Positions 20,955-60,449 of a DNA stretch of 64,000 nt are shown piece by piece; within the stretch, counting starts at the first letter, position 1; every line of letters begins with the position of its first letter. The stretch comes from Trueperella pyogenes. Its GTDB lineage: Bacteria > Actinomycetota > Actinomycetes > Actinomycetales > Actinomycetaceae. The stretch is taken from assembly GCF_001070855.1 (NCBI RefSeq), contig NZ_JVLH01000006.1, positions 186,001 to 250,000 on the forward strand. The letters are read 5' to 3'. A program made the position numbers and the translations under genes. Below the pieces are notes generated by a model that saw only the letters and a list, made by a program, of their open reading frames with translations, was not told where the DNA came from and searched no databases.

Positions 20955-21635
20955 TCACTTCTTCAGGTGGAAGATCTCTGTTCCTGTTCGATTGATCTTT
21001 GCTCCATCGCCGGTTTCGATGTCCCAGCAAACCATTGCCTCGCTTGTGCTGGCACACACGTCATTGCCAGCATAAACGATTTCTCCATAGGCAAGGGTGC
21101 GCAAACGCTCGCCCTGGTTCGTGGGGAGCGGACCATCGCGACGAGCGGAAATATAGGGAATTTCTTGGTCTTTGGAGAGCCCTGCAAAAAGAATATTGTC
21201 TTTGGCAAGCGGTTGCGTTCCCGGGAAAAATTCCTGCTCACCGTAGGGCTTATCCTCACGATAGGAATCGACCATACATAGCTGCAAAAGATCGTTAGCA
21301 AACCAGCAGTGGATGTTTCCAGAGGGCGAATTCACCCAGATTCCTTTGGAATCTCCGGCATCCTCCAAGCGGCTTGCCCCCTGGGGAATTGAGCCGAGTG
21401 TTGGGGTCACTCCCCTATCTTCAGCATTCGCGGTGGCACTTTGCGTCGAGGTCGTGGGAGAAGAACTTTGGGAAGCCTCGCTTTGCGCACTCCCCTGCGT
21501 TCCATTCCCGCTTGCCGAGGCCGCCGGAGAGCTCTGTGCACCTGAATTCCCCGAGCCCGTCCTGCAGGAAGTCAGAGAAAAGCTGAGCAGACCGATGAGG
21601 GCGATGGTAGAAACTTTGATGGTGGGATTACGCAT
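20955..21635 (-). CDS. Putative secreted lipoprotein
   Basis: 226-aa lipoprotein: signal peptide MRNPTIKVSTIALIGLLSFS ends in a lipobox LTSC (Cys24), followed by a Ser/Ala/Gly/Thr-rich linker to about residue 80. A globular domain with four cysteines follows (SGNIHCWFAND, LQLCMVDSY, YAGNDVCASTSEAMVCWDI), which could form two disulphides. A ribosome-binding site TTGGAGG precedes the ATG. It is the last gene of the GT2-gtrA-lipoprotein series. The domain resembles small actinobacterial secreted proteins of unknown function; I do not recognise a specific family. Confidence 0.8.
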   Translation of the reverse strand: MRNPTIKVSTIALIGLLSFSLTSCRTGSGNSGAQSSPAASASGNGTQGSAQSEASQSSSPTTSTQSATANAEDRGVTPTLGSIPQGASRLEDAGDSKGIWVNSPSGNIHCWFANDLLQLCMVDSYREDKPYGEQEFFPGTQPLAKDNILFAGLSKDQEIPYISARRDGPLPTNQGERLRTLAYGEIVYAGNDVCASTSEAMVCWDIETGDGAKINRTGTEIFHLKK

Positions 21636-21683
21636 AATGGGACCTCCAACAGCGTTGTGTGGATGTGTTGGAAGGAAGTATAT

Positions 21684-22124
21684 CTACTTCTTGCGGGTAA
21701 AAATGAACCTATACCCCAAGTAGTTACACACCGCTCCGGTACCCATTGCAACGATCTTTGCGGCAGGTTTCAGCAAGGATAGCGAGACCCCGACACCGAG
21801 TGCGGGAAGACCATGGACAATCACCCAGATGATGGCAGATTGAAGGACCATACCCGTAAAAAGAGTCAGCCCCGCAAAAGAAAAGAACGAGGCCCAGGAA
21901 AAACCTTTTGCTTGGAAGACAAAGTGTTGGTTAATCCAATAGCTCACGCACACGGTGATAATCGTCGAGGTGATATTCGACGGGATCACCGGCAGATCAA
22001 AGCCCACCGAGAGCAGCGAGAAGAGCGTAAAGTCCAGAAGCGAGGTTCCAACACCCACCAAGAGGTAACGGTAGAAGGAACCCGCTTCAAGAAGACGCTT
22101 CCACGCCTTTTGAAAGACGTTCAT
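21684..22124 (-). CDS. GtrA-like membrane protein
   Basis: 146-aa GtrA-family protein with four transmembrane helices (RYLLVGVGTSLLDFTLFSLL as TM1; AGLTLFTGMVLQSAIIWVIV as TM3) and the closing signature AVCNYLGYRFIFTRKK. GtrA proteins are thought to translocate polyprenyl-phosphate-linked sugars across the membrane. It lies 18 nt downstream of a dolichol-phosphate-mannose-synthase-like GT2 gene, the usual pairing, which supports a lipid-linked sugar flippase role. Confidence 0.88.
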   Translation of the reverse strand: MNVFQKAWKRLLEAGSFYRYLLVGVGTSLLDFTLFSLLSVGFDLPVIPSNITSTIITVCVSYWINQHFVFQAKGFSWASFFSFAGLTLFTGMVLQSAIIWVIVHGLPALGVGVSLSLLKPAAKIVAMGTGAVCNYLGYRFIFTRKK

Positions 22125-22142
22125 AGATTGCGTTGTCGCTTA

Positions 22143-23066
22143 TCAGTTCGGGAGCACTGAAGAATAGCGCAGGTAGGCCAAGCGCATGGCTTCGCGACGA
22201 GTCTTCAAATTACCGGATTGGAGAAGCCCGACCACGAAGGACAAGACACCAACTATTACCAGAGAGGATGCCAGTACAGCGCTGGGGAGCTTCGGAACAT
22301 TGCCGGCCTGGATGAAATGCCAGATGACAGGAGCTCCGAAGCACAGGGCCAGAAGCATGAAGATTGCCGAGAAGATCCCGTAGAAAGCCATGGGACGCTC
22401 GTGCGCAACCAGACGGCCAATCAGTCCAAGGATTCGGAAACCATCGTGGAAGGTACGCAGCTTGGATTCTGAGCCTGCGGGGCGATCCTTGAAGCCGACG
22501 CCGTACTCGGCCTGAGGAACACGCAACGCCATGGAGTGGACTGTGAGTTCGGTTTCGATCTCGAACTCACGAGAAAGCGCCGGGAAGGACTTGACGAAAC
22601 GGCGAGAGAAAACACGGTAGCCGGAGAGCATATCAGTAACAGTGTCGCCAAAGAGGAAGCCAACCAAAGAGTTGAACATCTTATTGCCCTGGGCGTGACC
22701 CGGGCGGTAGGCGGAGTTATCCTTGTCGTCAACGCGGCAGCCCAGAACATGATCAAGGTTTTCACGCACTAACAGGTCGATCATTTCGGGTGCAGCAGCA
22801 GCATCGTAGGTGTCATCACCGTCGATCATCACGTAAACATCGGCATCGATGTCCGCGAAGGCACGACGTACAACATTACCTTTGCCCTTACGAGTCTCTT
22901 TGCGGACGATTGCGCCGGCTGCGGCTGCAACTTCAGCGGTGCGATCCGAAGAGTTGTTGTCGTACACGTAGACTTCAATTCCTGGAACTGCATTCTTCAG
23001 GTCCGTGACAACTGTGCCAACTGCGGCTTCTTCGTTATAACACGGGACGATTGCTGCGATACGCAC
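22143..23066 (-). CDS. GT2 polyprenyl-phosphate glycosyltransferase
   Basis: 307-aa DPM1/GtrB-like glycosyltransferase that probably makes a polyprenyl-phosphate sugar for GtrA. The GT-A domain opens with VRIAAIVPCYNEEAAVG, has NNSSDRT and the metal-binding MIDGDDTYD (DxDD). Two C-terminal transmembrane helices (AFYGIFSAIFMLLALCFGAPVIW and LASSLVIVGVLSFVVGLLQ) anchor it. The GTG at 23066 is preferred: AAGGA lies 7 nt upstream and the protein then begins at the family's normal N-terminus. A GTG 16 codons earlier (23114) is in frame. Upstream lies the 63-bp repeat, which appears to be its promoter region. Confidence 0.87.
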   Translation of the reverse strand: MRIAAIVPCYNEEAAVGTVVTDLKNAVPGIEVYVYDNNSSDRTAEVAAAAGAIVRKETRKGKGNVVRRAFADIDADVYVMIDGDDTYDAAAAPEMIDLLVRENLDHVLGCRVDDKDNSAYRPGHAQGNKMFNSLVGFLFGDTVTDMLSGYRVFSRRFVKSFPALSREFEIETELTVHSMALRVPQAEYGVGFKDRPAGSESKLRTFHDGFRILGLIGRLVAHERPMAFYGIFSAIFMLLALCFGAPVIWHFIQAGNVPKLPSAVLASSLVIVGVLSFVVGLLQSGNLKTRREAMRLAYLRYSSVLPN

Positions 23067-23118
23067 CTTGAATTCCTTTACTCCGACATCGAGGGCCACA
23101 GGCAGAGCCTGCACTCAT
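23035..23118 (-). other. Possible 27-codon leaderless leader ORF
   Basis: An ATG at 23118 stands 6 nt after TAGGCT, the same -10 and spacing as at 35105. It opens a 27-codon frame ending in TAA at 23035 that overlaps the GTG start of the GT2 gene out of frame. It may be a regulatory leader peptide or simply chance. It begins at the edge of repeat copy 1; repeat copy 2 lacks this ATG. Confidence 0.25.
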
Positions 23119-23180
23119 GCGTATAGCCTAGCGAAGATCACTGCAATTTAGCGAGATAGCGCCCCCGGCAAGTCTGTTTT
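23118..23180. repeat. 63-bp direct repeat, copy 1
   Basis: Matches 24928-24990 at 61 of 63 positions in the same orientation; the two differences lie in the segment gcccc/actcc. Read on the minus strand it contains TAGGCT close to its end and leads into the GT2 gene, so it looks like that gene's promoter region. Together the copies flank the amidase-regulator-holin module. Confidence 0.93.
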
Positions 23181-23315
23181 ACATGAAAGCACACACAATG
23201 AGTTGCATCTCTTGACATGGCGAATAAAAGTCGGATGTTTCTTGGTTCTCTCTTTCCTAATCTTTCTGATGTCGGCCGATAAAGAAAAACCCGATACATC
23301 TGAAAGGAGGAATAC

Positions 23316-23951
23316 ATGCCTTCAATTTCAAAGTTGATTGAACGAATGCGCTACTGGTGTGAAGAAGTGAGTCTTGGATACAGTCAGGGGCCGAAACGGT
23401 GGAATATCTACCCCGGCGGAGAAACTGACTGTTCAGCATTGGTCATCCATTGCTTACAAGAAGCTGGTTTCGACACCGGGAGCGCAGAGAGCACAAAAAA
23501 TCTCAGCGACCAGTTAGTTCCCCGAGGCTGGCGACGAATGCCTGCAAATGGCCATCCAGAAGCAGGTGATCTCTTGCTCAATGACGGACTTCATGTCGCT
23601 GTCTACCTTGGCGGCGGAAAGCTCGCCGAGGCTTCACTCAACGAATTCGGAAAAACCACCGGTGGTAACCCCGGTGATCAGACTGGACATGAAACCCATG
23701 TCACTACCTACTACAACCGACCGTGGAAATGCTATCTGCGCTACACCGACTATTTGGAAGGATTTGACAACATGACTGCAGATGAAGTGAGGGCCATTAT
23801 GTGTGGTGGCGGAATCTTGGTCCGAGACCGCTCTGGACAGGACACCGGTATTCACACTGATTTGAGCAATGAAGCAGCTTGGAATCGAACGAATTTCGAG
23901 CGTATTTACGAACGCTTGGATCAAATTGAGGAACTTCTCAGTAAGAAGTAA
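23316..23951 (+). CDS. Phage-type peptidoglycan amidase (endolysin, Amidase_5-like)
   Basis: 211-aa NlpC/P60-like amidase resembling the bacteriophage peptidoglycan hydrolase family (Amidase_5, Dp-1 Pal type). Catalytic Cys39 sits in TDCSALVIHCLQ and His93 in NDGLHVAVYLGGGKL. The typical phage-lysin stretch GGNPGDQTGHETHVTTYYN plus PWKCYLRY closes the domain near residue 150. A C-terminal ~60 residues with a short coiled coil (IYERLDQIEELLSKK) may target or oligomerise it. There is no signal peptide, so export would need the holin encoded two genes downstream. A strong ribosome-binding site AAAGGAGG precedes the ATG. Base composition is lower in GC than the flanking glycosyltransferase genes. 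Confidence 0.85.
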   Translation: MPSISKLIERMRYWCEEVSLGYSQGPKRWNIYPGGETDCSALVIHCLQEAGFDTGSAESTKNLSDQLVPRGWRRMPANGHPEAGDLLLNDGLHVAVYLGGGKLAEASLNEFGKTTGGNPGDQTGHETHVTTYYNRPWKCYLRYTDYLEGFDNMTADEVRAIMCGGGILVRDRSGQDTGIHTDLSNEAAWNRTNFERIYERLDQIEELLSKK

Positions 23952-24074
23952 CGCCTGAAACACTCAGGCTTCAGCTTGTGGCATTCCATTTCCCAGAATG
24001 CGAATGCCACAAGCTGTCTCCCTCAGATGATTTCCTCGGTAATATCCCATCACTCAAAGGAGCACATTGCCGCT

Positions 24075-24458
24075 ATGGAAGCGACAATCAAAGATGTTCT
24101 CGAGCAATACGAATTCGCAAAGAAGGTGCTTGCCGCACCAACGTGCGATCTTGACGAGATCCGTTCTTTTCTCAGTCACATCAACAATGCCGAAATTCTC
24201 AATACCAGAAGACACCAACTAAAGATTGCAAGCTTTTACAACGAATGGGTAACACCTGCCTGGCAGAGCCTAAGCCCCTCAGATCGTGCGGTTCTCACCA
24301 TTCTCTACGTGAAACAACACGTATCACGTAGCGCTGCAATGGAAGACGTCTGTGACTATCTCTGTGTTGAGAGAAGCAGTGCTTACCGCTACCGAGAACA
24401 AGCCTGTCACCGTTTTCTTTCATATCTCAAGGTGAATTACCATGAACAAGCTGGTTGA
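24075..24458 (+). CDS. Small HTH (sigma-70 region 4-like) phage-type regulator
   Basis: 127-aa protein, helical throughout. The C-terminal half (SPSDRAVLTILYVKQHVSRS, then VCDYLCVERSSAYRYREQACHRFLSYL) has the organisation of a sigma-70 region 4 HTH, as in ArpU/DUF1492-type phage late-gene regulators. The N-terminal half has no recognised domain. The start is uncertain: the ATG at 24075 is 12 nt from AAAGGAG, and the open frame reaches back to 23976. Its 3' end overlaps the holin start by 17 nt. A hand count of 24181-24240 gives 22 G or C in 60, very low for this window. Confidence 0.65.
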   Translation: MEATIKDVLEQYEFAKKVLAAPTCDLDEIRSFLSHINNAEILNTRRHQLKIASFYNEWVTPAWQSLSPSDRAVLTILYVKQHVSRSAAMEDVCDYLCVERSSAYRYREQACHRFLSYLKVNYHEQAG

Positions 24459-24813
24459 AGCCCTTGAATTCACAGTCGATCAAGGGACAAGCCTCACGAT
24501 TGTATTTATCGCACTTATGGTCACTGACTACATTACTGGAACTATGGCGGCCTGGAGCCAACATTCCTTGAGCTCAAAAAGCGGCCGTATTGGCATCTTC
24601 AAAAAGATCACCATCTGCCTGATCATCGCGCTCATGAAACTGATTGATTGGTTGATCGCAGGAAACAGTGGCTTACTGTTTACCAGCGTGGTTCTGTTCT
24701 ACTGCACCAATGAGGCAATCAGTATCCTAGAAAACTGCCAGTGCCTAAAAGTTGCTCTTCCCGATCATTGGCTCGAGACTCTTCGCTCGTTGTTTTCCTC
24801 TCATCAGAGCTAG
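24442..24813 (+). CDS. Phage holin family protein
   Basis: 123-aa holin of the phage_holin_4 (toxin-secretion/lysis) type. Hydrophobic segments lie at about residues 18-35 (LTIVFIALMVTDYITGTMAA), 55-70 and 78-92. The family hallmarks are DYITG, SSKSGRIGIFKK and NEAISILEN. Holins make membrane lesions that release a cytoplasmic endolysin. It overlaps the regulator gene and is followed by a strong terminator. No capsid, tail, portal or integrase gene is nearby, so the module stands alone. Confidence 0.88.
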   Translation: MNKLVEALEFTVDQGTSLTIVFIALMVTDYITGTMAAWSQHSLSSKSGRIGIFKKITICLIIALMKLIDWLIAGNSGLLFTSVVLFYCTNEAISILENCQCLKVALPDHWLETLRSLFSSHQS

Positions 24814-24827
24814 ACAAAATAGATAGG

Positions 24828-24860
24828 CTGTCGGGGATGCGACTCACGCATCCCCGACAG
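24828..24860. terminator. Intrinsic terminator after the lysis module
   Basis: A perfect 13-bp stem (24828-24840 with 24848-24860) with a 7-nt loop, followed by TTCGTTT on the plus strand. It would stop transcripts from the holin gene and also those entering from the right through the glfT2 relic. Confidence 0.85.
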
Positions 24861-24881
24861 TTCGTTTAACGCGATTCTAGA

Positions 24882-24929
24882 TCACGCGATACCGAAGGTC
24901 TTCTCCCAAGATTGGACAGAAACCAATTG
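24882..24929 (-). pseudogene. Relic of a glfT2 3' end
   Basis: On the minus strand this reads QLVSVQSWEKTFGIA-stop. The intact glfT2 gene ends LVSVQAWEKTFGL-stop, so 11 of 12 residues match; over 36 nt the DNA matches at 30 positions. Upstream of these codons the sequence changes abruptly into the 63-bp repeat. This is therefore the truncated tail of a diverged glfT2 allele and marks a recombination junction. Confidence 0.8.
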
Positions 24930-24990
24930 CGTATAGCCTAGCGAAGATCACTGCAATTTAGCGAGATAGCACTCCCGGCAAGTCTGTTTT
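24928..24990. repeat. 63-bp direct repeat, copy 2
   Basis: 61 of 63 positions identical to 23118-23180, same orientation; the copies are 1810 bp apart. Here the repeat runs directly into the glfT2 relic rather than into a GT2 start. Recombination between the copies would excise the amidase-regulator-holin module. Confidence 0.93.
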
Positions 24991-25096
24991 CTAACAGAGT
25001 TTGGAGAAGACAGTTACCTCATTTGACTCCCCGGGATTGTTCGGATGCTTGTACTCAGGTAGTCGTCAAGGAAGAAGCCGCCGGCAACCCCAAAGA
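24991..25096 (-). other. Possible 3' remnant of another gene
   Basis: The stretch between repeat copy 2 and the acyltransferase stop has no complete gene. On the minus strand a short frame reads PEYKHPNNPGESNEV then TVFSKLC and a TAG at 24991, which has the look of a protein C-terminus but is cut off by an in-frame TGA a few codons upstream. It may be a decayed gene end; the match to any family is unknown. Confidence 0.25.
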
Positions 25097-26233
25097 TTAG
25101 GGCCGGGAAAGCACTTTCAGGAAAGCCTTTTCGCACGGCTGGACAACGAGCCGGAAAATTACAAAACAAACAGCAAAAAGCACCAGATAAATAAGCACGA
25201 TACTCAAAGAGGCATATGCAAGTCGCCATACACCGCCAGGGCTGGGAACCGAGAAAACAAATCCCCACAGGTGGGGCTTAAAAATGAAATTCTCGTGAAG
25301 AAGGTAGACGCCAAAAGTTGCCGGAGAAAGCGTCAGGACAAGGGAAGAGAGTTTCTCATGCGTCGAAGCATGCGTACGGCCTGAAATGTACTGAAGCGTC
25401 AAGATGAAAATAAGCACGCCACAAATCACGGAAAGGATCGGAGACGCCCCCGTACCGGCTGTGAAGAGATTTCCCGGGTAGTACAACTGTTCCCTGAGGA
25501 AAGAAGAAACAGCAATTGTATGCGTACCAACCATGCAAATGAGCGCACAGAGTATCATGATCGCCATCGCGAAATACCAACGTACGCGAGGCAAGCGATC
25601 TTCGTGTCGACGAATCAAAGCCCCGATGAGATAGAGAGTGCACAGATAGGATGCATCGGTAAAAGCCCATGTGTTTGCCGGGTTCAGAATATGCCAGATA
25701 AAGGTAATCCACAGCGATAGGCACAGCAGTGCCCCGTGCTGCCGAGCTGAGGTCGCGTCAAGAAGAATATTGATATAGGGCGCGACAATCACCATCACAA
25801 CGTATGCACTGATGAACCAGTACGCTCCGAATGTCACTGGGAATACGGACATCAGGATAGAACGAGGATTGACAAAATACTGGCTGGATCCTACAAGGAG
25901 CGAGAGAACAAAGTAAGCACCCCATAATCCACACGAATATATGAAGGTCTGAATCCAGATTTTTGCTACTCGTGTGAACGGGCTGCGTGTACTACGTGAT
26001 AAAAAGTAGGCTGAGATGAGAACGAAAACCGTCACGCCTACTTGTCCCGGCATGATCGTGACCGCGTGGAGTGCTGATTTCCATGACTGGGCGAGTGCTG
26101 GATCTATCCGTGAGGGAGAATCATCGGAAGCAAAATAGTGCGTCGCGACAATGAGGAACATCGAGAATATACGCAGAAGTTCGAGTTCCCAATGACGTTT
26201 CGCGGCTGGCTTCCCAATTTGTGCAGCACTCAT
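25097..26233 (-). CDS. Acyltransferase 3 family membrane protein
   Basis: 378-aa polytopic membrane protein of the acyltransferase_3 (OafA/WecH-like) family. The N-terminal signature is WELELLRIFSMFLIVATHYF, with the conserved His in the first helix. About ten hydrophobic segments follow, including VGVTVFVLISAYFLSRSTRSPF and FGVYLLHENFIFKPHLW. Members acetylate or succinylate surface glycans. The ATG at 26233 follows AGGTGG; a GTG five codons earlier is in frame. A hand count of 25921-25980 gives 25 G or C in 60, against 39 in 60 within glfT2 (27001-27060), so it is part of a low-GC island. It may decorate the neighbouring polysaccharide. Confidence 0.86.
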   Translation of the reverse strand: MSAAQIGKPAAKRHWELELLRIFSMFLIVATHYFASDDSPSRIDPALAQSWKSALHAVTIMPGQVGVTVFVLISAYFLSRSTRSPFTRVAKIWIQTFIYSCGLWGAYFVLSLLVGSSQYFVNPRSILMSVFPVTFGAYWFISAYVVMVIVAPYINILLDATSARQHGALLCLSLWITFIWHILNPANTWAFTDASYLCTLYLIGALIRRHEDRLPRVRWYFAMAIMILCALICMVGTHTIAVSSFLREQLYYPGNLFTAGTGASPILSVICGVLIFILTLQYISGRTHASTHEKLSSLVLTLSPATFGVYLLHENFIFKPHLWGFVFSVPSPGGVWRLAYASLSIVLIYLVLFAVCFVIFRLVVQPCEKAFLKVLSRP

Positions 26234-26285
26234 TTTTGTTCTTTCCACCTATGATCGACAGATCAAGAACTTATTTTCGCGTAAA

Positions 26286-26329
26286 TAAGGGAAGGTGTGA
26301 GCAGTTTGAGCCGCTCGCACCTTCCCTTA
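26286..26329. terminator. Intrinsic terminator downstream of glfT2
   Basis: A 17-bp stem with one mismatch (26286-26302 with 26313-26329; TAAGGGAAGG at its base) and a 10-nt loop. It lies 2 nt after the glfT2 stop on the minus strand and is followed by TTTAC. It separates the galactan operon from the acyltransferase gene. Confidence 0.85.
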
Positions 26330-26331
26330 TC

Positions 26332-28290
26332 TCACAGACCGAAAGTCTTTTCCCAAGCTTGGACGGAGACCAGTTCTGGAAGAGCTTCCCGATACTCACG
26401 ACTGAGCGAGGCCCAACGACGAATGAGCTCCGCGTGTAGCGCAATGCTCTCTGTCAGAGCACGACGGTAGTGCTTGGCATCGCGCTGGTAGCGCCATGCT
26501 CCGGAGCCTTCTGCGTTCGATACCAGCGCAGAGTTGAGGTTTGCGAGCCTCCACCAACGCGCGTCCGTGCTGGAGAGGACGTCCTCAACACGATCTTCAC
26601 GGTGTTCACCTTCAGGCAGGAACTGCTTGGTGATACCAGCGATTGCCTTTGACATAAACTGGGCGCGTGAATCAGGCTTGGTGCCGACCGGAGCAGGCTT
26701 CTTACGGTGTACTGCTGGGAAGTCTGCAGCCTCGGTCATCAGACGTGCGTCTGTGTATTCCTTTGCCTTTGCGCGCGCCTCTGCAGCACGAGTGTGCATT
26801 GACGGGTGCAGGTGGCCGGGGCCAAGCAAAACGTCCTTGAGCCCCTGACGGCGCAGATCTGCACTGTAATACTGCAGTGAGAGCAGGGCACGAACGTCCG
26901 AGGCCAGAGAGGTCTTCGGGAAGGATGCACCACGCGGGTAGGGAGAGTGCAGCAGCGCAGCAACCCAACGGTTGCGCTGGTGGAAGTATGCCTGCCAGTC
27001 CAGACCGTCGTCTTTCTCGGTCCACGGCACGTGCCACACGGCAGCGCCAGGAAGAGAGACCGTCGGGAACCCGTGTTCTGCTGCGCGCAGACCATATTCG
27101 GAGTCGTCCCACTTGATAAAGAAGGGCAGAGAAAGACCGATCTCAGCAACAACAGGCTTGGGGATCAAGCACATCCACCAACCGTTGTAGGCAACATCAA
27201 TGCGGCGGTTCAAGCGAGGATCATTGCGGATCGTGCGCTGAGCCAAGTCAACTGTTGCAAGTTCAGGGTTGACAGCTCCCCACCAGAATTTGTGAGCATC
27301 AATCGTTTCACCCATTGAGTGCAAAATGGTACGTTCATTCGCATTGAACATATGGCCACCAACAATGGTTGGCGTCAAAGTGTGCTCTGCGAAAGCAAGC
27401 GCGCGAAGCAAACCTTCGGGCTCGATCACAGCATCATCATCAAGCAGCAGGACATAGTCCGAATCGGGGTTCTTGAGCATCTCGTACATACCGCGAGAGA
27501 AGCCACCGGAACCACCCAGGTTCGCCTGCTCAATGACACGGAGTTTACTTCCCAGTTCTTCTTGAAGACGCGGGTAACGCTCGCAGTCCTTCACGTTCTT
27601 ATTGCCCTGATCGACAATGAGAATCTCAGCAATATGATCAAGAACCTCGGGTTCTGCTTGGAAGCGCTCCGCTTGCGTCAAGCAGTCTTCGGGAAGGTTG
27701 TAGGTGGTGATACCCACGGTCACATTGGCATGACGGTCACCTTCGCGCGTAGGTACCGACCAGGTTCCCCATTCAAGCTCAACATCTTCCTTGAGAGCAG
27801 TGATTTCGGGCCAGATCCAGCCGCCATCACCAAAACGGTTCAGCGGGATATCGAAACTCAGTTCACCAGATCCTGCGCGCGTTGCAACAGGGGTGAAGGT
27901 ACCACGTGCCGAGGAACGCATAACCTCAACAACCGCCCTCTTCGAGAGCTTCAGAGTCAGACGGATGTTACGAACATCTGTCCAACGCTGCCAATAAGAA
28001 GCAGGGAAAGCGTTGAAGTAAGTCGCAAGTGAAAGACGCTCGCGTGCCGGGATCATAAGCGAGGTACGAGTCGCATCCACTCCACGCGGCATTTCAAACT
28101 GACGCAGCGTCAGAGAGGTTTGGTCGCCTTGTGCGGCACTCAGCGCGGCACTAGAAGGTGCAACTCCCCAGTCCACATAGAGCGGCCATAACGACGTGTC
28201 GCTTTCTCCTGGGAACACAACGCGTTGGACGGGAGTCCATTGCTGTTCGATTGCAGTTCCTTCAGCAACCGCTTCGGTTTTCGCTTTCAC
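26332..28290 (-). CDS. glfT2: GlfT2-like galactofuranosyltransferase
   Basis: 652-aa bifunctional galactofuranosyltransferase, the polymerase of the galactan chain in actinobacteria. It has an N-terminal beta-rich domain (residues 10-180) and a GT-A domain with NLGGSGGFSRGMYEM and the metal-binding DDD at 284-286 (LLLDDDAVIEPEG). The acceptor-site region follows (YNGWWMCLIPKP; FFIKWDDSEYGLRAAEHGF; WHVPWTEKDDGLDWQAYFHQRNR), then a helical C-terminal domain. The length fits GlfT2. The GTG at 28290 is preferred because AAGGAG lies 6 nt upstream; an ATG five codons earlier is part of that site. It is the last gene of the galactan operon and ends at a strong terminator. Confidence 0.9.
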   Translation of the reverse strand: MKAKTEAVAEGTAIEQQWTPVQRVVFPGESDTSLWPLYVDWGVAPSSAALSAAQGDQTSLTLRQFEMPRGVDATRTSLMIPARERLSLATYFNAFPASYWQRWTDVRNIRLTLKLSKRAVVEVMRSSARGTFTPVATRAGSGELSFDIPLNRFGDGGWIWPEITALKEDVELEWGTWSVPTREGDRHANVTVGITTYNLPEDCLTQAERFQAEPEVLDHIAEILIVDQGNKNVKDCERYPRLQEELGSKLRVIEQANLGGSGGFSRGMYEMLKNPDSDYVLLLDDDAVIEPEGLLRALAFAEHTLTPTIVGGHMFNANERTILHSMGETIDAHKFWWGAVNPELATVDLAQRTIRNDPRLNRRIDVAYNGWWMCLIPKPVVAEIGLSLPFFIKWDDSEYGLRAAEHGFPTVSLPGAAVWHVPWTEKDDGLDWQAYFHQRNRWVAALLHSPYPRGASFPKTSLASDVRALLSLQYYSADLRRQGLKDVLLGPGHLHPSMHTRAAEARAKAKEYTDARLMTEAADFPAVHRKKPAPVGTKPDSRAQFMSKAIAGITKQFLPEGEHREDRVEDVLSSTDARWWRLANLNSALVSNAEGSGAWRYQRDAKHYRRALTESIALHAELIRRWASLSREYREALPELVSVQAWEKTFGL

Positions 28291-28382
28291 GCGGCACTCC
28301 TTCATTGTGTGCATTTACGGGCAAAGTCTATGACAGAAAAGCTAATAAAATCTATGTCAAACCGCGGGTGCCTTGTTGACGT

Positions 28383-30383
28383 TTAGCCAAGTCCACAAGC
28401 CGTAATCTTGTAAAGGCTGTATGGTCCGCGTTCCAGAACACGCTCAAAACCGGGTGTTTCCGGAGTAATGTTCCGAATGCCGGTCCACGGCGAGTGCTCA
28501 TCAAAAATCTGGTGATGACGCTCAAGAACAATCGCGTAGCGGATATCCTCCTGTTGGATCACCGGGCAAATTTCTTGCGGGTCTTCGGAAACCTTGTACA
28601 AGTCATCCATGATGACAAGAGCATCCGGCTTCATCTGACCAATCCAGTTCCCCGGCATGGAAGTGAAGACAACTGGCAATCCGCTGGTTGCGTATCCAAA
28701 CATCGATCCATCGAAAGGATCATTAGCGACCTTCCCTTGAGTTCCGGTGATCTGGCTTGCCTCATCCATGAAGGCAATCTCATCAGAATAGGTGTAGTGA
28801 TCCTGACGGTCCTGGGCATGGTCATTCATCGTTTCAATGCGCCACTTCATGTTTCCCCCAGTCAGCGTGACCGCAGCGATCAGAGCATAGACGAGCGCAG
28901 AGGAGATGAAACGAAGAGCGGCGCCCTTGGGATGTGATGTCTTGCCAAGATTTTCGCTCAACCACGCAAGAGAAAGCGCCAGCATCGGAACCGCAACGAT
29001 TGACATAGCACCGGCGGGGCGATAGGAGTCGTGATACCAGAATCCCGTCGCGATGTCTCGGAATTTCCCCTCAAAGGCCGCACACAAAACATAGAGCGCG
29101 GCGATGAATGCGTAGGAAATGACAAGCCAGGCCCGACGGTATTTGATGACGGCAAGAAGACCACCGATGGCAACGCCAATGGCAAGGAGCCACTGTGCAG
29201 CCAAACGCACCGATGCTGCATTCGTCGACAGAAGAAGGACCGCCGCAATCGCGCGTTTTGGACTTTGGAAGGAATCCCAACGCCACGTAACGGTGCGTTG
29301 CATGAACGGAGCTCTATACAGCGCATACCACAGGCAAGCTGCCAGAGCGACCAGCACAATTGCGACCAAGGCTGCCTTAATAGTGCTCCCACTCGAACGA
29401 CGCACCTGGTTGAAAGCAAGAGCAACCACGTAGGGGAAGAGAATAACCGCAAGGGTGAAGACCGAGTTGGGCTGAGCCAAGGCAATGGCTGCAAAACCAC
29501 CAATGGCAATCAGAATCAGACCGCAGAGCTCAGCACCCTTGAATTGCTTGACAAGAACGCCTCGAAGCAAAAGAACAAATGCCGCAAGGTAAGCAGGCGC
29601 GAGCGCGTAGGAGAAGAAGTTTGAGTACAAGACTCCGAAGGCAAGCAATCCCCAGGGATATGCCGCAAAAAGCGAAGAAACCAGAACGGCAAAAACTGGC
29701 GATAGGCGCACCTTCTTACCAAAAAGCACGTCCGTCAGAACGGCAGAAGAAAGAGGCCAAATGGTCAGCAAAACCACCAAGCACGAGGCGTTAATCGCAA
29801 CCGTCATGGGGGTTCCCAAGCCGGAAATCACCATAGATACCCAGCCGTGCCACAGAGCGGGATAGAAGTGGGAGCCAACGGTCCCGTCAACAGCTGCACT
29901 ATGAAGTGAGGATCCGTCACCACTTTCAATCAGCCAGCGGATCACCGACATATGGAAGGGGGTGTCGTAGGTCGAGAAGAAAGCCTGAGGAGAGGGAACG
30001 GAGCGGATGAAAACTCCGATTGCGATCACGGCATTAACAATCAGTGCACCGACCAGAGCAATGGCACGCGACCCCGCCCAGCCCGAGAAAAGCCTCTTAT
30101 AGTTCTCAAGCCAATGCCTTGGCCTCGAACCACACAACCACATGATCCCCGCAACTACGATGAACACACCGATGTCGCAGCACAGGACAAACTTGAGGCT
30201 CCAGTGTCCTGGAATAACGCCGCTCGCAAGTGACGCGAAGCCCAAGATCGCTGCTCCCGTCACGGGTGCAAAACCGACCGTATAGAGGCGTCTACTCAGG
30301 AAAAGAGCGTTAACCGCAATACCGGGAACGTACAGGATCGCAGCCAGCACAAGCGCCGGAACGATCACCGAGAGCCATGCCAT
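28383..30383 (-). CDS. Large polytopic membrane protein (DUF6541-like)
   Basis: 666-aa protein with about 14 hydrophobic segments in the first 500 residues and an extracytoplasmic C-terminal domain (TGTQGKVANDPFDGSMFGYATSGLPVVF). It matches the DUF6541 type of actinobacterial envelope protein, topologically like GT-C glycosyltransferases. An acidic motif in the first outer loop is expected for a GT-C enzyme; FFSTYDTPFHMSVIRWLIESGDGS is a candidate region. AGGAGA precedes the ATG. It lies between wzt and glfT2, so action on the galactan or its lipid carrier outside the membrane is a reasonable inference. Confidence 0.83.
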   Translation of the reverse strand: MAWLSVIVPALVLAAILYVPGIAVNALFLSRRLYTVGFAPVTGAAILGFASLASGVIPGHWSLKFVLCCDIGVFIVVAGIMWLCGSRPRHWLENYKRLFSGWAGSRAIALVGALIVNAVIAIGVFIRSVPSPQAFFSTYDTPFHMSVIRWLIESGDGSSLHSAAVDGTVGSHFYPALWHGWVSMVISGLGTPMTVAINASCLVVLLTIWPLSSAVLTDVLFGKKVRLSPVFAVLVSSLFAAYPWGLLAFGVLYSNFFSYALAPAYLAAFVLLLRGVLVKQFKGAELCGLILIAIGGFAAIALAQPNSVFTLAVILFPYVVALAFNQVRRSSGSTIKAALVAIVLVALAACLWYALYRAPFMQRTVTWRWDSFQSPKRAIAAVLLLSTNAASVRLAAQWLLAIGVAIGGLLAVIKYRRAWLVISYAFIAALYVLCAAFEGKFRDIATGFWYHDSYRPAGAMSIVAVPMLALSLAWLSENLGKTSHPKGAALRFISSALVYALIAAVTLTGGNMKWRIETMNDHAQDRQDHYTYSDEIAFMDEASQITGTQGKVANDPFDGSMFGYATSGLPVVFTSMPGNWIGQMKPDALVIMDDLYKVSEDPQEICPVIQQEDIRYAIVLERHHQIFDEHSPWTGIRNITPETPGFERVLERGPYSLYKITACGLG

Positions 30384-30412
30384 TTTCTCTCCTGATCTAC
30401 GTGAAAAGCGTG

Positions 30413-31140
30413 TTACAAAGAACGCAGTCGATCGACTGCTTCTTGCGCTGTACCGTCTACAAGAAGCTCACCGTGGTGCAGCAACACTCCCCTATTGCAC
30501 AGGCGCGCAATCAGGTCCAGGTCGTGGCTGACAATCACCAAAGAGGTTCCCTGTTCTTGCATCTCATGGATACGGTCAAGGCACTTGCGCTGGAAGGGCT
30601 CGTCACCCACAGCCAGAATCTCATCAACAAGGAAGATATCCGGGCTGGTGTGCACTGCGACAGCGAAAGCCAAACGCAAGAACATACCCGAGGAGTAGAA
30701 CTTCACCTCGGTGTCGATAAACTTCTCAATCTCCGAAAAGGCGACAATATCGTCAAAAGCAGCTTCGATTTGCTCTTTACTCATGCCAAGAATTGCGCCG
30801 TTGAGAAAAACATTTTCACGGCCCGTCAGGTCCGGGTGGAAGCCCGCACCGACTTCAATGAGGCCTGCCATGCGTCCGCGGTATCCCACCGAGCCCTCGT
30901 CGGGCGTAATGACACCTGAAATGAGCTTAAGCATTGTGGACTTACCGGAACCGTTGAACCCGATCAGACCGATCGAATCCCCCTGCTCAACCGAGAAACT
31001 CACATGGTTGAGTGCGCGGAAATGATTCACCAGCTGACTGCGACGCCCCGTCAAGCTCCAGACCAATCGGTCCTTCAGAGTGTGCGTATTGCGCAGTGCG
31101 AATTCTTTGACAACATCATCAACGCGAATAACTTCAGTCA

Positions 31141-31141
<1 letters not shown>
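30413..31141 (-). CDS. wzt: Polysaccharide ABC exporter ATPase (Wzt/Rv3781-like)
   Basis: 242-aa ABC-2 type ATPase for a lipid-linked polysaccharide. Walker A GFNGSGKS (residues 61-68), a degenerate signature FYSSGMFLRLAFAVA, Walker B DIFLVDEILAVGD and the switch His in VIVSHDLDLI are present. No C-terminal carbohydrate-binding extension follows, as in the mycobacterial galactan exporter and unlike E. coli O9a Wzt. The start overlaps the wzm stop as ATGA; a 32-codon upstream extension of the frame is rejected because it lies inside wzm. Confidence 0.92.
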
Positions 31142-34097
<2,956 letters not shown>

Positions 34098-35117: not shown

Positions 35118-35223
35118 CGGGCAAATGTGAGGTATATGCCAAGTAATGCACATAAATTCTGAATAATATTTGGATAGGGTGTTTGAAGAGTTAGTCTCTG
35201 TTTGCCCCCCAGGAGATTCACCA

Positions 35224-37173
35224 ATGCGTTCTTCGCTTTTTGCTTCATCGTGTGCAACTGCGGCGCTGCTTGCCCTCAGCATTGCACCGATTTCCCTTGC
35301 CACTCCCACTTCCGAGGCCGAAGCTCCCACCCCATCAACACTGGCGTCTTCCCCCACTCAGCCTGAAACTCCCGCACCCGAAGCATCCCCATCTACAAGT
35401 GCGTCCTCTTCGGTCGATTCCACTACATCCTCGGGAGACACTCCGACCGGAGACAATATTCCAAGTAGCGAAGACCGCTCCGCTACTGACGACTTTGCGT
35501 CCCTCTCCCCCGAGGAGCAGATCCGCCAGCGCTGGCAGGACATGGGCGCAGAAAACGGAGTGCTTGGTGCCGCAACTTCTGGACTAGTCCCCCTGCGCGA
35601 CGGGGCTTTCATCCAGTTCTACCGGGGCGGCCAAATCTATTGGACCGCTCAATACGGTGCGCATGCCTCGCGAGCAGGAATCCACAGTGCCTATGGCGCA
35701 CAGAAGTGGGAAAACGGCCCTCTGGGTTTCCCGACCTCTGATGAAGAAGTTCAGACAATCGGAGGAATTCGCGGCGCGGTCCAAACCTATGAGAACGGCC
35801 AAATTCGATGGAGCACCCGGGGCGGGGCCCACCCCATCTGGGGCAAAATCCTCGAACGCTACAAAACCGCCGAAGCCGAAGGTCGTTCATTGGGCTGGCC
35901 CACCGCGAACGAAATGAAGGACGCAGCGGACGGCGGCGCATACCAGCACTTCACTGGTGGCTCGATCTACTTCCACCCATCTACCGGCGCGCATAGGGTG
36001 AGTGGTGGTATCCGCAATCTCTGGGAAGGTCAGGGCTGGGAACGCGGCCAGATGGGCTACCCGACGGGCGAAGAGACCGCTACGGCGGATGGTGGCGTGT
36101 ATCAGACCTTCCAAGGCGGCACCGCTTACTGGCACCCTCGTACTGGCAGCTATTACGTGCATGGCGCAGTGCTGGGAGCATACGGCCGCGCCGGATATGC
36201 GCGTGGACGCTACGGCTACCCTTTGACCAATGAAACCCCTTCGACAAACGGTGGTGTTTTCCAGCGTTTCCAGGGTGGAACAGCGTACTGGCACCCAGGT
36301 TCGGATTCGTATTTCGTCCACGACGCGATTTTTGACACTTATGGTTCCTACAACTGGGAGCGAGGGGAACTCGGTTATCCCCTAACCGACGAAACGGCTT
36401 CCGCAAACGGTGGTGTCTTCCAACGTTTCCAAGGCGGAACAGTCTACTGGTCCGCTCGCACAGGATCTCACGCAGTCCCACTCTCGATGCTAGAACTTTA
36501 CGGCCAGCATGGTTACGTGCGCGGGCACCTGGGATATCCAACATCAGAGCCCTACTGGGATGGCAACCGTCAGAAGCAAAACTTCGAGCACGGAGTCTTG
36601 GAAAAGACCAACGATTTCAACATGACCTGGGCCGGGCAGCCTAATAATTACTTCTGCGGGCCGACCAGTGGATGGATGATCCTCAACGCAATTGGTGCAC
36701 ACCAGTCCGCACAGGGAACACCGCTCAGCATTGATGCGGTTGCAAGCCGTGATTACATGAACACCGTAGATTATGGCTACACAAGCTTCCACGATCGACG
36801 TTTTGAGTACGGGATGAACCGTTGGCTGGGCCGCGATGCCTACACCACGATTCACACTCCTTCGGTTGATCAGGTTCGTGATTCGGTAAAGAACTCCTTC
36901 CGTAAGGGACTCCCCACCGCTGTCGATGCCCAAGAACGTCGCGGTGGCCCGCACTATAACGGTCACCCAAACTCAACCTTCTCCCACATCATGGTTGTGA
37001 CTTCCTATGATCCGAACACCGATTCCATGCGGATGGCCGACCCGGGAGTTCACTACCTGTGGAACGGTGAGGAACAATTCTGGTATCACCTGCCCTCATT
37101 CACCCAGAACTTCCTCCAAACCGAGGTCGAACGCGATGGACGCGAGCACATTGGCATCTACACCGCACGCTGA
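35224..37173 (+). CDS. Secreted LGFP-repeat protein with C39-like cysteine peptidase
   Basis: 649-aa exported protein. Signal peptide (residues 1-30, ending near PISLATPT), a Pro/Ser/Thr-rich linker to about 95, then seven LGFP-type repeats (cores VLGAAT, PLGFPT, SLGWPT, QMGYPT, RYGYPL, ELGYPL, HLGYPT) spaced about 52-55 residues, to about residue 450. A C-terminal papain-fold peptidase_C39-like domain has Cys478 (NYFCGPTSGWMIL) and His588 (FSHIMVVTSYD) with a later Asp in RMADPG. LGFP repeats are thought to bind the cell-wall glycan, so the peptidase would be held in the wall. AGGAG lies 8 nt before the ATG at 35224; the frame's upstream ATG at 35170 lacks a signal-peptide start. Divergent from the galactan operon. 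Confidence 0.9.
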   Translation: MRSSLFASSCATAALLALSIAPISLATPTSEAEAPTPSTLASSPTQPETPAPEASPSTSASSSVDSTTSSGDTPTGDNIPSSEDRSATDDFASLSPEEQIRQRWQDMGAENGVLGAATSGLVPLRDGAFIQFYRGGQIYWTAQYGAHASRAGIHSAYGAQKWENGPLGFPTSDEEVQTIGGIRGAVQTYENGQIRWSTRGGAHPIWGKILERYKTAEAEGRSLGWPTANEMKDAADGGAYQHFTGGSIYFHPSTGAHRVSGGIRNLWEGQGWERGQMGYPTGEETATADGGVYQTFQGGTAYWHPRTGSYYVHGAVLGAYGRAGYARGRYGYPLTNETPSTNGGVFQRFQGGTAYWHPGSDSYFVHDAIFDTYGSYNWERGELGYPLTDETASANGGVFQRFQGGTVYWSARTGSHAVPLSMLELYGQHGYVRGHLGYPTSEPYWDGNRQKQNFEHGVLEKTNDFNMTWAGQPNNYFCGPTSGWMILNAIGAHQSAQGTPLSIDAVASRDYMNTVDYGYTSFHDRRFEYGMNRWLGRDAYTTIHTPSVDQVRDSVKNSFRKGLPTAVDAQERRGGPHYNGHPNSTFSHIMVVTSYDPNTDSMRMADPGVHYLWNGEEQFWYHLPSFTQNFLQTEVERDGREHIGIYTAR

Positions 37174-58952: not shown

Positions 58953-60449
58953 CTACGAGGAGAAGCGCCGAATTTTTACCCTCACCACCCAGATCAGCAG
59001 GAGAAGGATCAGCGCAGTGATAAGACCAGACCACTCTCCCACCGAGATTCGCGCACCTGGAAGTGCAGACAATCTGGAGGCAACCGCTGATATCCAGGCG
59101 GTTCCCCAAGACGTTAACCATGCGCATGCATAGCCAAGAGCGGGCCATATTTGAGCTGCAAGTGCTGAGATAAAACACCCTACGGTCACAGGAGTTACCA
59201 ATGGTGCGATCAGTAGCTGAGCAGGTATTGCCCATGGACTGACCCATGAGTTCATCGACAGCATGATCGGAAGCGTAGCTAGTTGGGCTCCCAATGGGAC
59301 ACTGATGAGTTTGGCACTCCATTCAATTCCTGACCGGATGCATTGCGGAATCGGTCCGACTTGGGATACCCCAGTCTCAATCCAACGTGCAGGAACGCTT
59401 ACTCCCCAGGTTGCAAGCACTGAGAGTGTAAAGCCCAAGGCACAGGCATCGTAGGGTGATATCAGGCAGGCAAGGATAATGACAGTGCTCAACGATGAGT
59501 AAATTCCGCCTTCTCTATTACTCCACATTCCAATAAAACCGATCACGCTGACCGCAAAGGAACGCAACACCGAAGAAGCGGGGCCAACAAGTCCAGCGAA
59601 AAGCAACAGAACTGAGATTTGGGTAATGATCGCTATGCGGCGTTTCTTTGTTGCAAGAAGACCAACTGTCATCATCAAAATCGACATATGAGTACCTGAC
59701 ACTGCTGTGAGGTGCGCAAATGACACGGTCTTCATATCATCACGCATTTGAGCACCGGCTTGGTGGTCATCTCCCAGTGACATTCCTGGTATCAGCGCAC
59801 GTGCATGCTCCGGCAGTGTCACAACGATCTTCTCGAGGTTCCTCCTAACACCTTGAGAAATACGCGTCCAGCGATCGTTTGGAGGACTACGATCCCACGA
59901 TTTGACTCGAAGTGCGCCCACATTCGGAATGGCGTGAGCCCAATTAAGATCGCAGGTCCCACTAGCAAGAACTCGATCTCCGCGTCGAAGTGTTCTCAGA
60001 GATTCGCTGGTGGATACAAGGAGAAAACCCAGATGTTCTTTATCTCCAAGAAAACGAGCACGAACGTAGTAGCTCGCTTGTTTTCTCTTATCCGTTGCGT
60101 TCTTTCCTTCACGTACTTCGCCAAGCAGAACAAAGGAAGCATCGCGAAGTTCCTTTCCTTGCGCGCATAACTGCCTTGCTTCGTCTTCCCAGCTCGTTGC
60201 GCGACTTGAAGAGATCACAATGCACGTGCAGCACAGGCATATCGTGACAATGAATAGAGGAGCATATTCACTGACCCGTTCTCTTCCTAACCCCTGGAAT
60301 CCTCGTGGGGCTAGAAGCAAAGGGAAGAGAAAAGCAATGCATATTCCGGCGCATAGAAGAAACGGAGCCCTGTTCAGTGCACCCCAGGTGCATAGCCAGG
60401 ATGAAATCGCTAAGGGTACCAAGCGGATATCAATAGATGAAGCCCTCAC
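58953..60449 (-). CDS. comEC: ComEC/Rec2 competence channel protein, without metallo-beta-lactamase domain
   Basis: 498-aa polytopic protein of the DNA-uptake channel. N-terminal helices, an extracytoplasmic OB-like domain (about 95-200), and the Competence domain with ALIPGMSLGDD and FAHLTAVSGTHMSILMM, then about eight hydrophobic segments. The C-terminal metallo-beta-lactamase-like nuclease domain found in Bacillus ComEC is absent; the protein ends in RVKIRRFSS. The start overlaps the comEA stop (ATGA). A hand count of 60001-60060 gives 26 G or C in 60, low for this window. Confidence 0.9.
   Translation of the reverse strand: MRASSIDIRLVPLAISSWLCTWGALNRAPFLLCAGICIAFLFPLLLAPRGFQGLGRERVSEYAPLFIVTICLCCTCIVISSSRATSWEDEARQLCAQGKELRDASFVLLGEVREGKNATDKRKQASYYVRARFLGDKEHLGFLLVSTSESLRTLRRGDRVLASGTCDLNWAHAIPNVGALRVKSWDRSPPNDRWTRISQGVRRNLEKIVVTLPEHARALIPGMSLGDDHQAGAQMRDDMKTVSFAHLTAVSGTHMSILMMTVGLLATKKRRIAIITQISVLLLFAGLVGPASSVLRSFAVSVIGFIGMWSNREGGIYSSLSTVIILACLISPYDACALGFTLSVLATWGVSVPARWIETGVSQVGPIPQCIRSGIEWSAKLISVPLGAQLATLPIMLSMNSWVSPWAIPAQLLIAPLVTPVTVGCFISALAAQIWPALGYACAWLTSWGTAWISAVASRLSALPGARISVGEWSGLITALILLLLIWVVRVKIRRFSS

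What the first reader, a model, noticed from the sequence alone, without database searches (positions are those of the whole stretch)
23118..24990. Stand-alone phage-type lysis module between 63-bp direct repeats
Seen: amidase (Cys39/His93), HTH regulator and holin, in that order, end at a strong terminator and sit between two 63-bp direct repeats (61/63 identical, 1810 bp apart). No capsid, tail, terminase or integrase is present. Known: holin plus endolysin can release cytoplasmic proteins (toxin export and holin/endolysin-type secretion) as well as kill cells. Inference: a domesticated lysis or protein-release device, with its own region 4-like regulator, located inside an envelope-glycan locus. 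The amidase lacks a signal peptide, so it depends on the holin. I have not seen this arrangement described, but cannot search.
Basis: partly seen in the sequence, partly recalled or inferred. Interest (0 to 1): 0.8.

Follow-up and report, generated by a model that had tools for sequence, protein, structure and literature searches.

The report
Phage lysis cassette in glycan locus
Three intact phage-type cell-lysis genes sit without a phage in a bacterial cell-wall sugar locus, and the repeats around them look like a by-product of gene swapping between strains rather than the ends of a mobile element.

Summary
In detail: an NlpC/P60 endolysin, a phage late-regulator-like HTH protein and a PF05105 holin lie between two 63-bp repeats (61/63), followed by a strong hairpin. 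Three tested phage structural families (PF04860, PF03354, PF05065) are absent from the genome. In the three relatives with a clear match to the repeat (G010, G018, G021) it is single and the cassette is absent.

The reading of the repeats changes. The repeat is a conserved segment just upstream of the neighbouring glycosyltransferase gene (GT1). The cassette's right end is a 46-base stub of the 3' end of another gene of the locus, glfT2, fused to the second repeat. Flank identities are mosaic: G018-like on the left, partly G010-like on the right, with the switch somewhere between about 21 and 24.9 kb. The repeats are best read as two alleles' copies of one segment, left by recombination, with the cassette as alternative cargo of the repeat-glfT2 interval, like the acyltransferase.

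The genes descend from phages (endolysin about 65% to bifidobacterial phage PMBT6). In none of 293 fetched loci outside this genome did the regulator occur with endolysin or holin. A phage-derived passenger cassette is most likely; a domesticated release device is possible but has no direct support.

The parts
23118..23180 (.). Repeat copy 1 (R1), segment directly upstream of GT1; identical to the single copy in G018
23181..23315 (+). Leader of the cassette: TTGACA with only a weak -10 match, then AAAGGAGG ribosome-binding sequence
23316..23951 (+). Endolysin, NlpC/P60 plus ELLD, C39/H93/E105, short C-terminal tail
23972..24016 (+). Perfect 15-bp inverted repeat between endolysin and regulator; stable RNA hairpin without a following T run
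24075..24458 (+). HTH regulator of a phage late-regulator family (PHROG 8834, weakly 248); ATG start is my choice, mechanical ORF from TTG 23976
24442..24813 (+). Holin, PF05105 / TIGR01593
24828..24860. Strong terminator-like hairpin; the T-tail criterion was met on the - strand only, a looser TTCGTTT follows on +
24882..24927 (-). 3'-end stub of a glfT2 allele (LVSVQSWEKTFGIA-stop), joined to R2
24928..24990 (.). Repeat copy 2 (R2), linked to the acyltransferase allele
22143..23114 (-). GT1, family 2 glycosyltransferase (left neighbour)
25097..26248 (-). Acyltransferase PF01757; present in G010 and G021, absent at this place in G018
26332..28314 (-). GT2, GlfT2-type galactofuranosyltransferase, intact resident copy

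Best explanation
A phage-derived two-component lysis cassette with a late-type regulator gene, carried as alternative cargo in the interval between a conserved 63-bp segment upstream of GT1 and the 3' end of glfT2. Shown: the single-copy, cassette-free state in three relatives, the glfT2 stub at the right border, mosaic flank identities. Inferred: an allele R-cassette-glfT2 met an allele R-acyltransferase-glfT2; homologous recombination served one side and an end-joining event fused the stub to the second R (homology-facilitated illegitimate recombination), leaving R-cassette-stub-R-acyltransferase-glfT2. If expressed, the HTH protein would activate the cassette, the holin would accumulate and open the membrane, and the endolysin, which has no signal peptide, would reach and cut peptidoglycan. 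Whether the host uses this or merely carries a silent passenger is open; I think passenger is more likely.
For: Single R and no cassette in G010, G018 and G021. The stub matches the last residues of GlfT2 at 11 of 14 positions in frame; 301 base shuffles of the element reached at most 7. It is also an 89% match over 38 bases to G021 glfT2. Outside about 21-33 kb G018 is 86.9-98.5% and G010/G021 are 65.9-82.9% identical to the window over the aligned bases of each 1-kb step; in 24.9-30.9 kb G010 is 88.2-97.2%, and at 28.9-29.9 kb 97.2% against 65.5% for G018. Three different cargoes follow R: spacer (G018), acyltransferase (G010, G021), cassette. Phage relatives of all three proteins.
Against: No donor genome with R-cassette-glfT2 was found (213 family genomes). 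The mosaic does not pin the joint: GT1 is about 92% to both G018 and G010, so the switch lies anywhere between about 21 and 24.9 kb, and in the glfT2 body (26.9-27.9 kb) G018 is closer (93.9%) than G010 (91.8%). All alleles diverge at exactly the same base after R (TCTGTTTT|), which recombination alone does not require and a site-specific process would explain. The stub differs from G021 at 5, the resident copy at 7, G010 at 8 and G018 at 10 of 39 bases, so the cassette allele probably came from a further lineage and more than one event is needed. Intact ORFs and the regulator-holin overlap are more than a mere relic needs.
Confidence: 0.55

Rival explanations
1. Decayed prophage: a phage integrated at R (63-bp att core) and internal deletion left only the lysis genes.
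For: All three genes have phage relatives; single-R sites look like attB; an endolysin relative also stands among what read as chromosomal genes in L068 (my reading, not analysed further).
Against: The right border is a glfT2 stub, not phage DNA. No integrase ORF in the interval. In none of 293 fetched loci did a regulator match occur together with an endolysin or holin match; in the prophages of G012 and G028 regulator and holin lie 23-26 kb apart.
Confidence: 0.2
2. Small mobile unit that integrates at R, by a trans-acting recombinase or as a circle by homologous recombination through R.
For: Exact 63-bp duplication against the cassette-free site; R border identical in all alleles seen; R-cassette-stub-R is what a one-R circle would give.
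Against: Clear R matches occur in only 4 of 200 family genomes: the two copies here and one upstream of GT1 in each of G010, G018, G021; 7 further genomes match at E 0.04-0.1, chance level. No exact match to a 30-base core of R in viral contigs. No recombinase in the interval.
Confidence: 0.12
3. Domesticated lysis device that lets a subpopulation burst and release cytoplasmic protein or DNA (T10SS-like), under its own regulator.
For: Intact genes, own regulator overlapping the holin gene, no signal-peptide-like segment on the endolysin, three phage structural families absent. The holin matches TIGR01593, named toxin secretion/phage lysis holin.
Against: Only this genome of 213 in the family holds it at DNA level, so no conservation. 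No cargo gene linked. No expression data.
Confidence: 0.1

Closest known systems
Lysis cassette of Badaztecvirus (BadAztec1, NC_048858)
   Same: Holin and endolysin related to these, adjacent; endolysin 57%, holin about 32%
   Different: Order holin-endolysin, no HTH gene between, part of a complete 18.6-kb phage
Endolysin of Bifidobacterium phage PMBT6 (AXF39342.1)
   Same: Catalytic N-terminus, 65% over residues 1-143
   Different: Longer C-terminal part; phage context
Type 10 secretion system (Serratia, Yersinia entomophaga; PMC10847048, passages seen)
   Same: Holin plus peptidoglycan hydrolase outside a prophage
   Different: No spanin gene among the three, no linked cargo, no evidence of release
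tcdE-tcdR type holin plus regulator loci (search listing and abstract starts; family membership of TcdE recalled)
   Same: A holin beside a regulator gene
   Different: Here an endolysin is present and no toxin gene was seen
Homology-facilitated illegitimate recombination leaving displaced 3' genes (V. cholerae T6SS arrays, PMC5361080, passages seen)
   Same: Conserved segment as anchor, foreign end joined illegitimately, old downstream piece kept
   Different: Here the cargo is a lysis cassette in a glycan locus; also only a proposed mechanism there

Membership tests
PF05105 / TIGR01593 holin | Profile score above curated cut-off | tested here: met
   96.7 against 22.2 and 78.6 against 40.2 bits
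PF05105 / TIGR01593 holin | Forms membrane lesions that release endolysin | not testable with these tools
   Only hydrophobic segments seen
NlpC/P60 endolysin | Cys-His-polar triad | tested here: met
   C39, H93, E105. Of 58 viral loci given, 56 aligned: C-H-Q 51, C-H-E 4, C-H-S 1; 3 of the 56 (all C-H-Q in the alignment) are second copies of the same contig. That position 105 is the third residue rests on recalled Spr spacing
Phage late regulator (PHROG 8834 / 248-like) | Sequence family | tested here: met
   E 8.9e-10 and 3.3e-4; 139 of 190 pattern-matched viral stretches encode a relative
Sigma region 4 fold | Structure match | tested here: inconclusive
   No PDB sequence match with profile A1; structure machine busy at all nine tries
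Prophage remnant | Phage structural or integration genes, att borders | tested here: not met
   None in the interval; right border is a glfT2 stub; no PF04860, PF03354, PF05065 in the genome. Other families not searched
Type 10 secretion system | Holin and peptidoglycan hydrolase outside a prophage | tested here: met
   (three structural families only)
Type 10 secretion system | Co-regulated secreted cargo | tested here: inconclusive
   Neighbours with Pfam matches are mainly glycan genes; regulon unknown
Type 10 secretion system | Cassette-dependent protein release | not testable with these tools
   Needs experiment

The most novel reading that the evidence does not exclude
A self-regulated lysis cassette that the host keeps as a swappable allele of a cell-wall galactan locus, exchanged for an acyltransferase or an empty spacer at one fixed base after R, and used for programmed bursting of a subpopulation (release of protein or DNA, or premature lysis of phage-infected cells when phage late regulators act on it).
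Probability: 0.08. Interest if true: 0.75.

Novelty: new variant of a known kind. Interest (0 to 1): 0.4.

Why it matters
It shows how a phage lysis cassette can live outside any phage as cargo of a recombining envelope-glycan locus, and gives a worked case in which conspicuous direct repeats are probably not mobile-element ends. If the cassette proves active, it would be a T10SS-like system with its own phage-type activator in an actinobacterium.

Tried and rejected
R as a tRNA or known RNA: no tRNA in the window; four sub-threshold microRNA matches, all within 26280-26336. The hairpin 23972-24016 as a recurrent element: the G057 match lies inside an MFS-like gene (my reading) and does not fold beyond shuffles, chance. 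A conserved operator: only short two-copy repeats, mostly inside the endolysin gene. Defence role by profile: only JukB at E 0.017 for the HTH protein, discounted. PDB sequence relatives: none. Structure prediction of the HTH alignment A4: machine busy, so no model. Parent phage by DNA: only the PMBT6 endolysin (two records), 64.6% over 24% of the query. Plasmids: holin relatives in 36 of 72,556 records, all below 60% identity, contexts not examined. Holin protein in the class: 2 of 394 genomes, this one included.

Limits: one search covered 293 of 301 held loci (8 from this genome dropped) at E 0.01; flanks were mostly 1.5 to 10 kb and shorter at contig ends, some loci overlap, and most had been chosen by similarity to one of the three proteins. 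A4 used 25 of the 80 regulator loci kept, which itself kept 80 of 139; one search likewise kept 80 of at least 552 holin loci. Identities count aligned bases only. Only one genome per species was searchable.

Full report
OBSERVATION. The two 63-bp repeats, the three genes and the hairpin are present at the stated coordinates. The repeats match at 61/63; the next best placement in the window has 31 mismatches. The endolysin has NlpC/P60 and ELLD matches above cut-off, the holin PF05105 and TIGR01593. The HTH protein matches PHROG 8834 (E 8.9e-10, unknown function) and weakly 248, a transcriptional activator family. The interval is lower in G+C (0.479) than the window (0.549), but so is the acyltransferase gene (0.492).

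WHAT THE GENES ARE. The endolysin is nearest to bifidobacterial phages: PMBT6 65%, BadAztec1 57%, among 13 of 50,697 phage records with a match. A single-protein scan of named genomes gave 7 loci, 6 in Bifidobacterium and 1 in an Atopobiaceae MAG. Cys39 and His93 are kept; residue 105 is Glu where 51 of 56 aligned viral loci have Gln, 4 Glu and 1 Ser (3 of the 56 are duplicates). The holin has relatives in 246 phage records, all under 60%. In the genus 3 of 35 genomes hold PF05105: this one, G012 and G028. In G012 and G028, TerL_ATPase, portal and capsid genes lie between the regulator and the holin, which are 23-26 kb apart, and the G028 holin is followed by what reads as an unrelated amidase (my reading). 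This genome has none of those three structural families. Regulator relatives occur in 41 of 200 family genomes, this one included; in an annotated phage one lies between a helicase and an HNH endonuclease gene. Holin and endolysin matches occurred together in 8 of 293 loci, and a regulator match occurred with neither. The combination was thus not seen in what I fetched.

THE BORDERS. G010, G018 and G021 hold one R and no cassette. In G010 and G021 the left and right flank matches overlap by exactly the 63 bases, and in G018 R is identical to R1. R lies directly 5' of GT1 in all of them. The right end of the cassette, 24882-24927 on the - strand, reads LVSVQSWEKTFGIA-stop, the C-terminus of GlfT2 (LVSVQAWEKTFGL-stop in the resident copy): 11 of 14 positions, against at most 7 in 301 shuffles. 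So to the right of the cassette probably once stood a glfT2 gene, as it stands to the right of the spacer in G018 and of the acyltransferase in G010 and G021. On this reading the cassette is one of three cargoes of the R-glfT2 interval.

THE MOSAIC. In 1-kb steps outside about 21-33 kb, G018 is 86.9-98.5% and G010 and G021 are 65.9-82.9% identical over aligned bases. From about 22 to 33 kb G010 and G021 are 84.3-97.2%. The acyltransferase, absent from G018 here, is G010-like, and the step 28.9-29.9 kb (DUF6541 gene) is 97.2% to G010 against 65.5% to G018. The switch is not sharp: GT1 is about 92% to both relatives, so it lies somewhere between about 21 and 24.9 kb, and the glfT2 body is slightly closer to G018 (93.9%) than to G010 (91.8%). 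This fits recombination between an R-cassette-glfT2 allele and an R-acyltransferase-glfT2 allele, with the fused stub as an illegitimate end, but does not prove it. A similar mechanism was proposed for V. cholerae T6SS arrays (PMC5361080, passages read). A gene with the PF03772 Competence domain in the window is compatible with DNA uptake but proves nothing.

WHAT DOES NOT FIT. All alleles diverge after R at the same base, which suggests a preferred exchange point. The stub is nearer G021 (5 of 39 differences) than the resident copy (7), G010 (8) or G018 (10), so the cassette allele probably came from a further lineage. No donor was found among 213 family genomes.

HOW IT WOULD WORK. Shown: intact frames, ribosome-binding sequences, regulator-holin overlap, no signal-peptide-like segment on the endolysin, a perfect 15-bp inverted repeat between endolysin and regulator, and a strong hairpin at the end. 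Inferred: the regulator activates a weak promoter (TTGACA with a poor -10); the holin opens the membrane; the endolysin lyses. Not shown: expression, activity or benefit.

KNOWN OR NEW. The works-like answer is a phage holin-endolysin cassette. Membership in T10SS is not claimed: one defining feature is met, the others are untested or unclear. Searches on secretion by lysis cassettes and on stand-alone or domesticated lysis genes in print (listings and abstract starts only, plus passages of PMC10847048) listed nothing that I recognised as such an arrangement in an actinobacterial glycan locus. That covers only the held library, those terms and the rows listed.

Noticed in passing
window 21000-33000: Apparent hot spot of recombination between species in a galactan-type locus (glfT2, glf, ABC transporter): G010/G021 identity rises from 66-83% outside to 84-97% inside.
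   Followed up: partly
window 23180/24990; L053 2744: Three different cargo alleles diverge at exactly the same base after R (TCTGTTTT|); cause unknown.
   Followed up: partly
window 28383-30383: DUF6541 protein is 97% identical to G010 but only 52% to the otherwise closest relative G018.
   Followed up: partly
window 23972-24016: Perfect 15-bp inverted repeat with a stable RNA fold and no T run between endolysin and regulator.
   Followed up: partly
L068 6001-6735: An endolysin relative (62%) in Bifidobacterium psychraerophilum with what read as chromosomal genes around it; possibly another prophage remnant.
   Followed up: no
window 35170-37173: Protein with six LGFP repeats and a C39-like peptidase domain near two LytR-CpsA-Psr genes.
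   Followed up: no
window 58953-60449: Competence-domain gene (PF03772, ComEC type by recall) beside a DNA polymerase III delta subunit gene.
   Followed up: no
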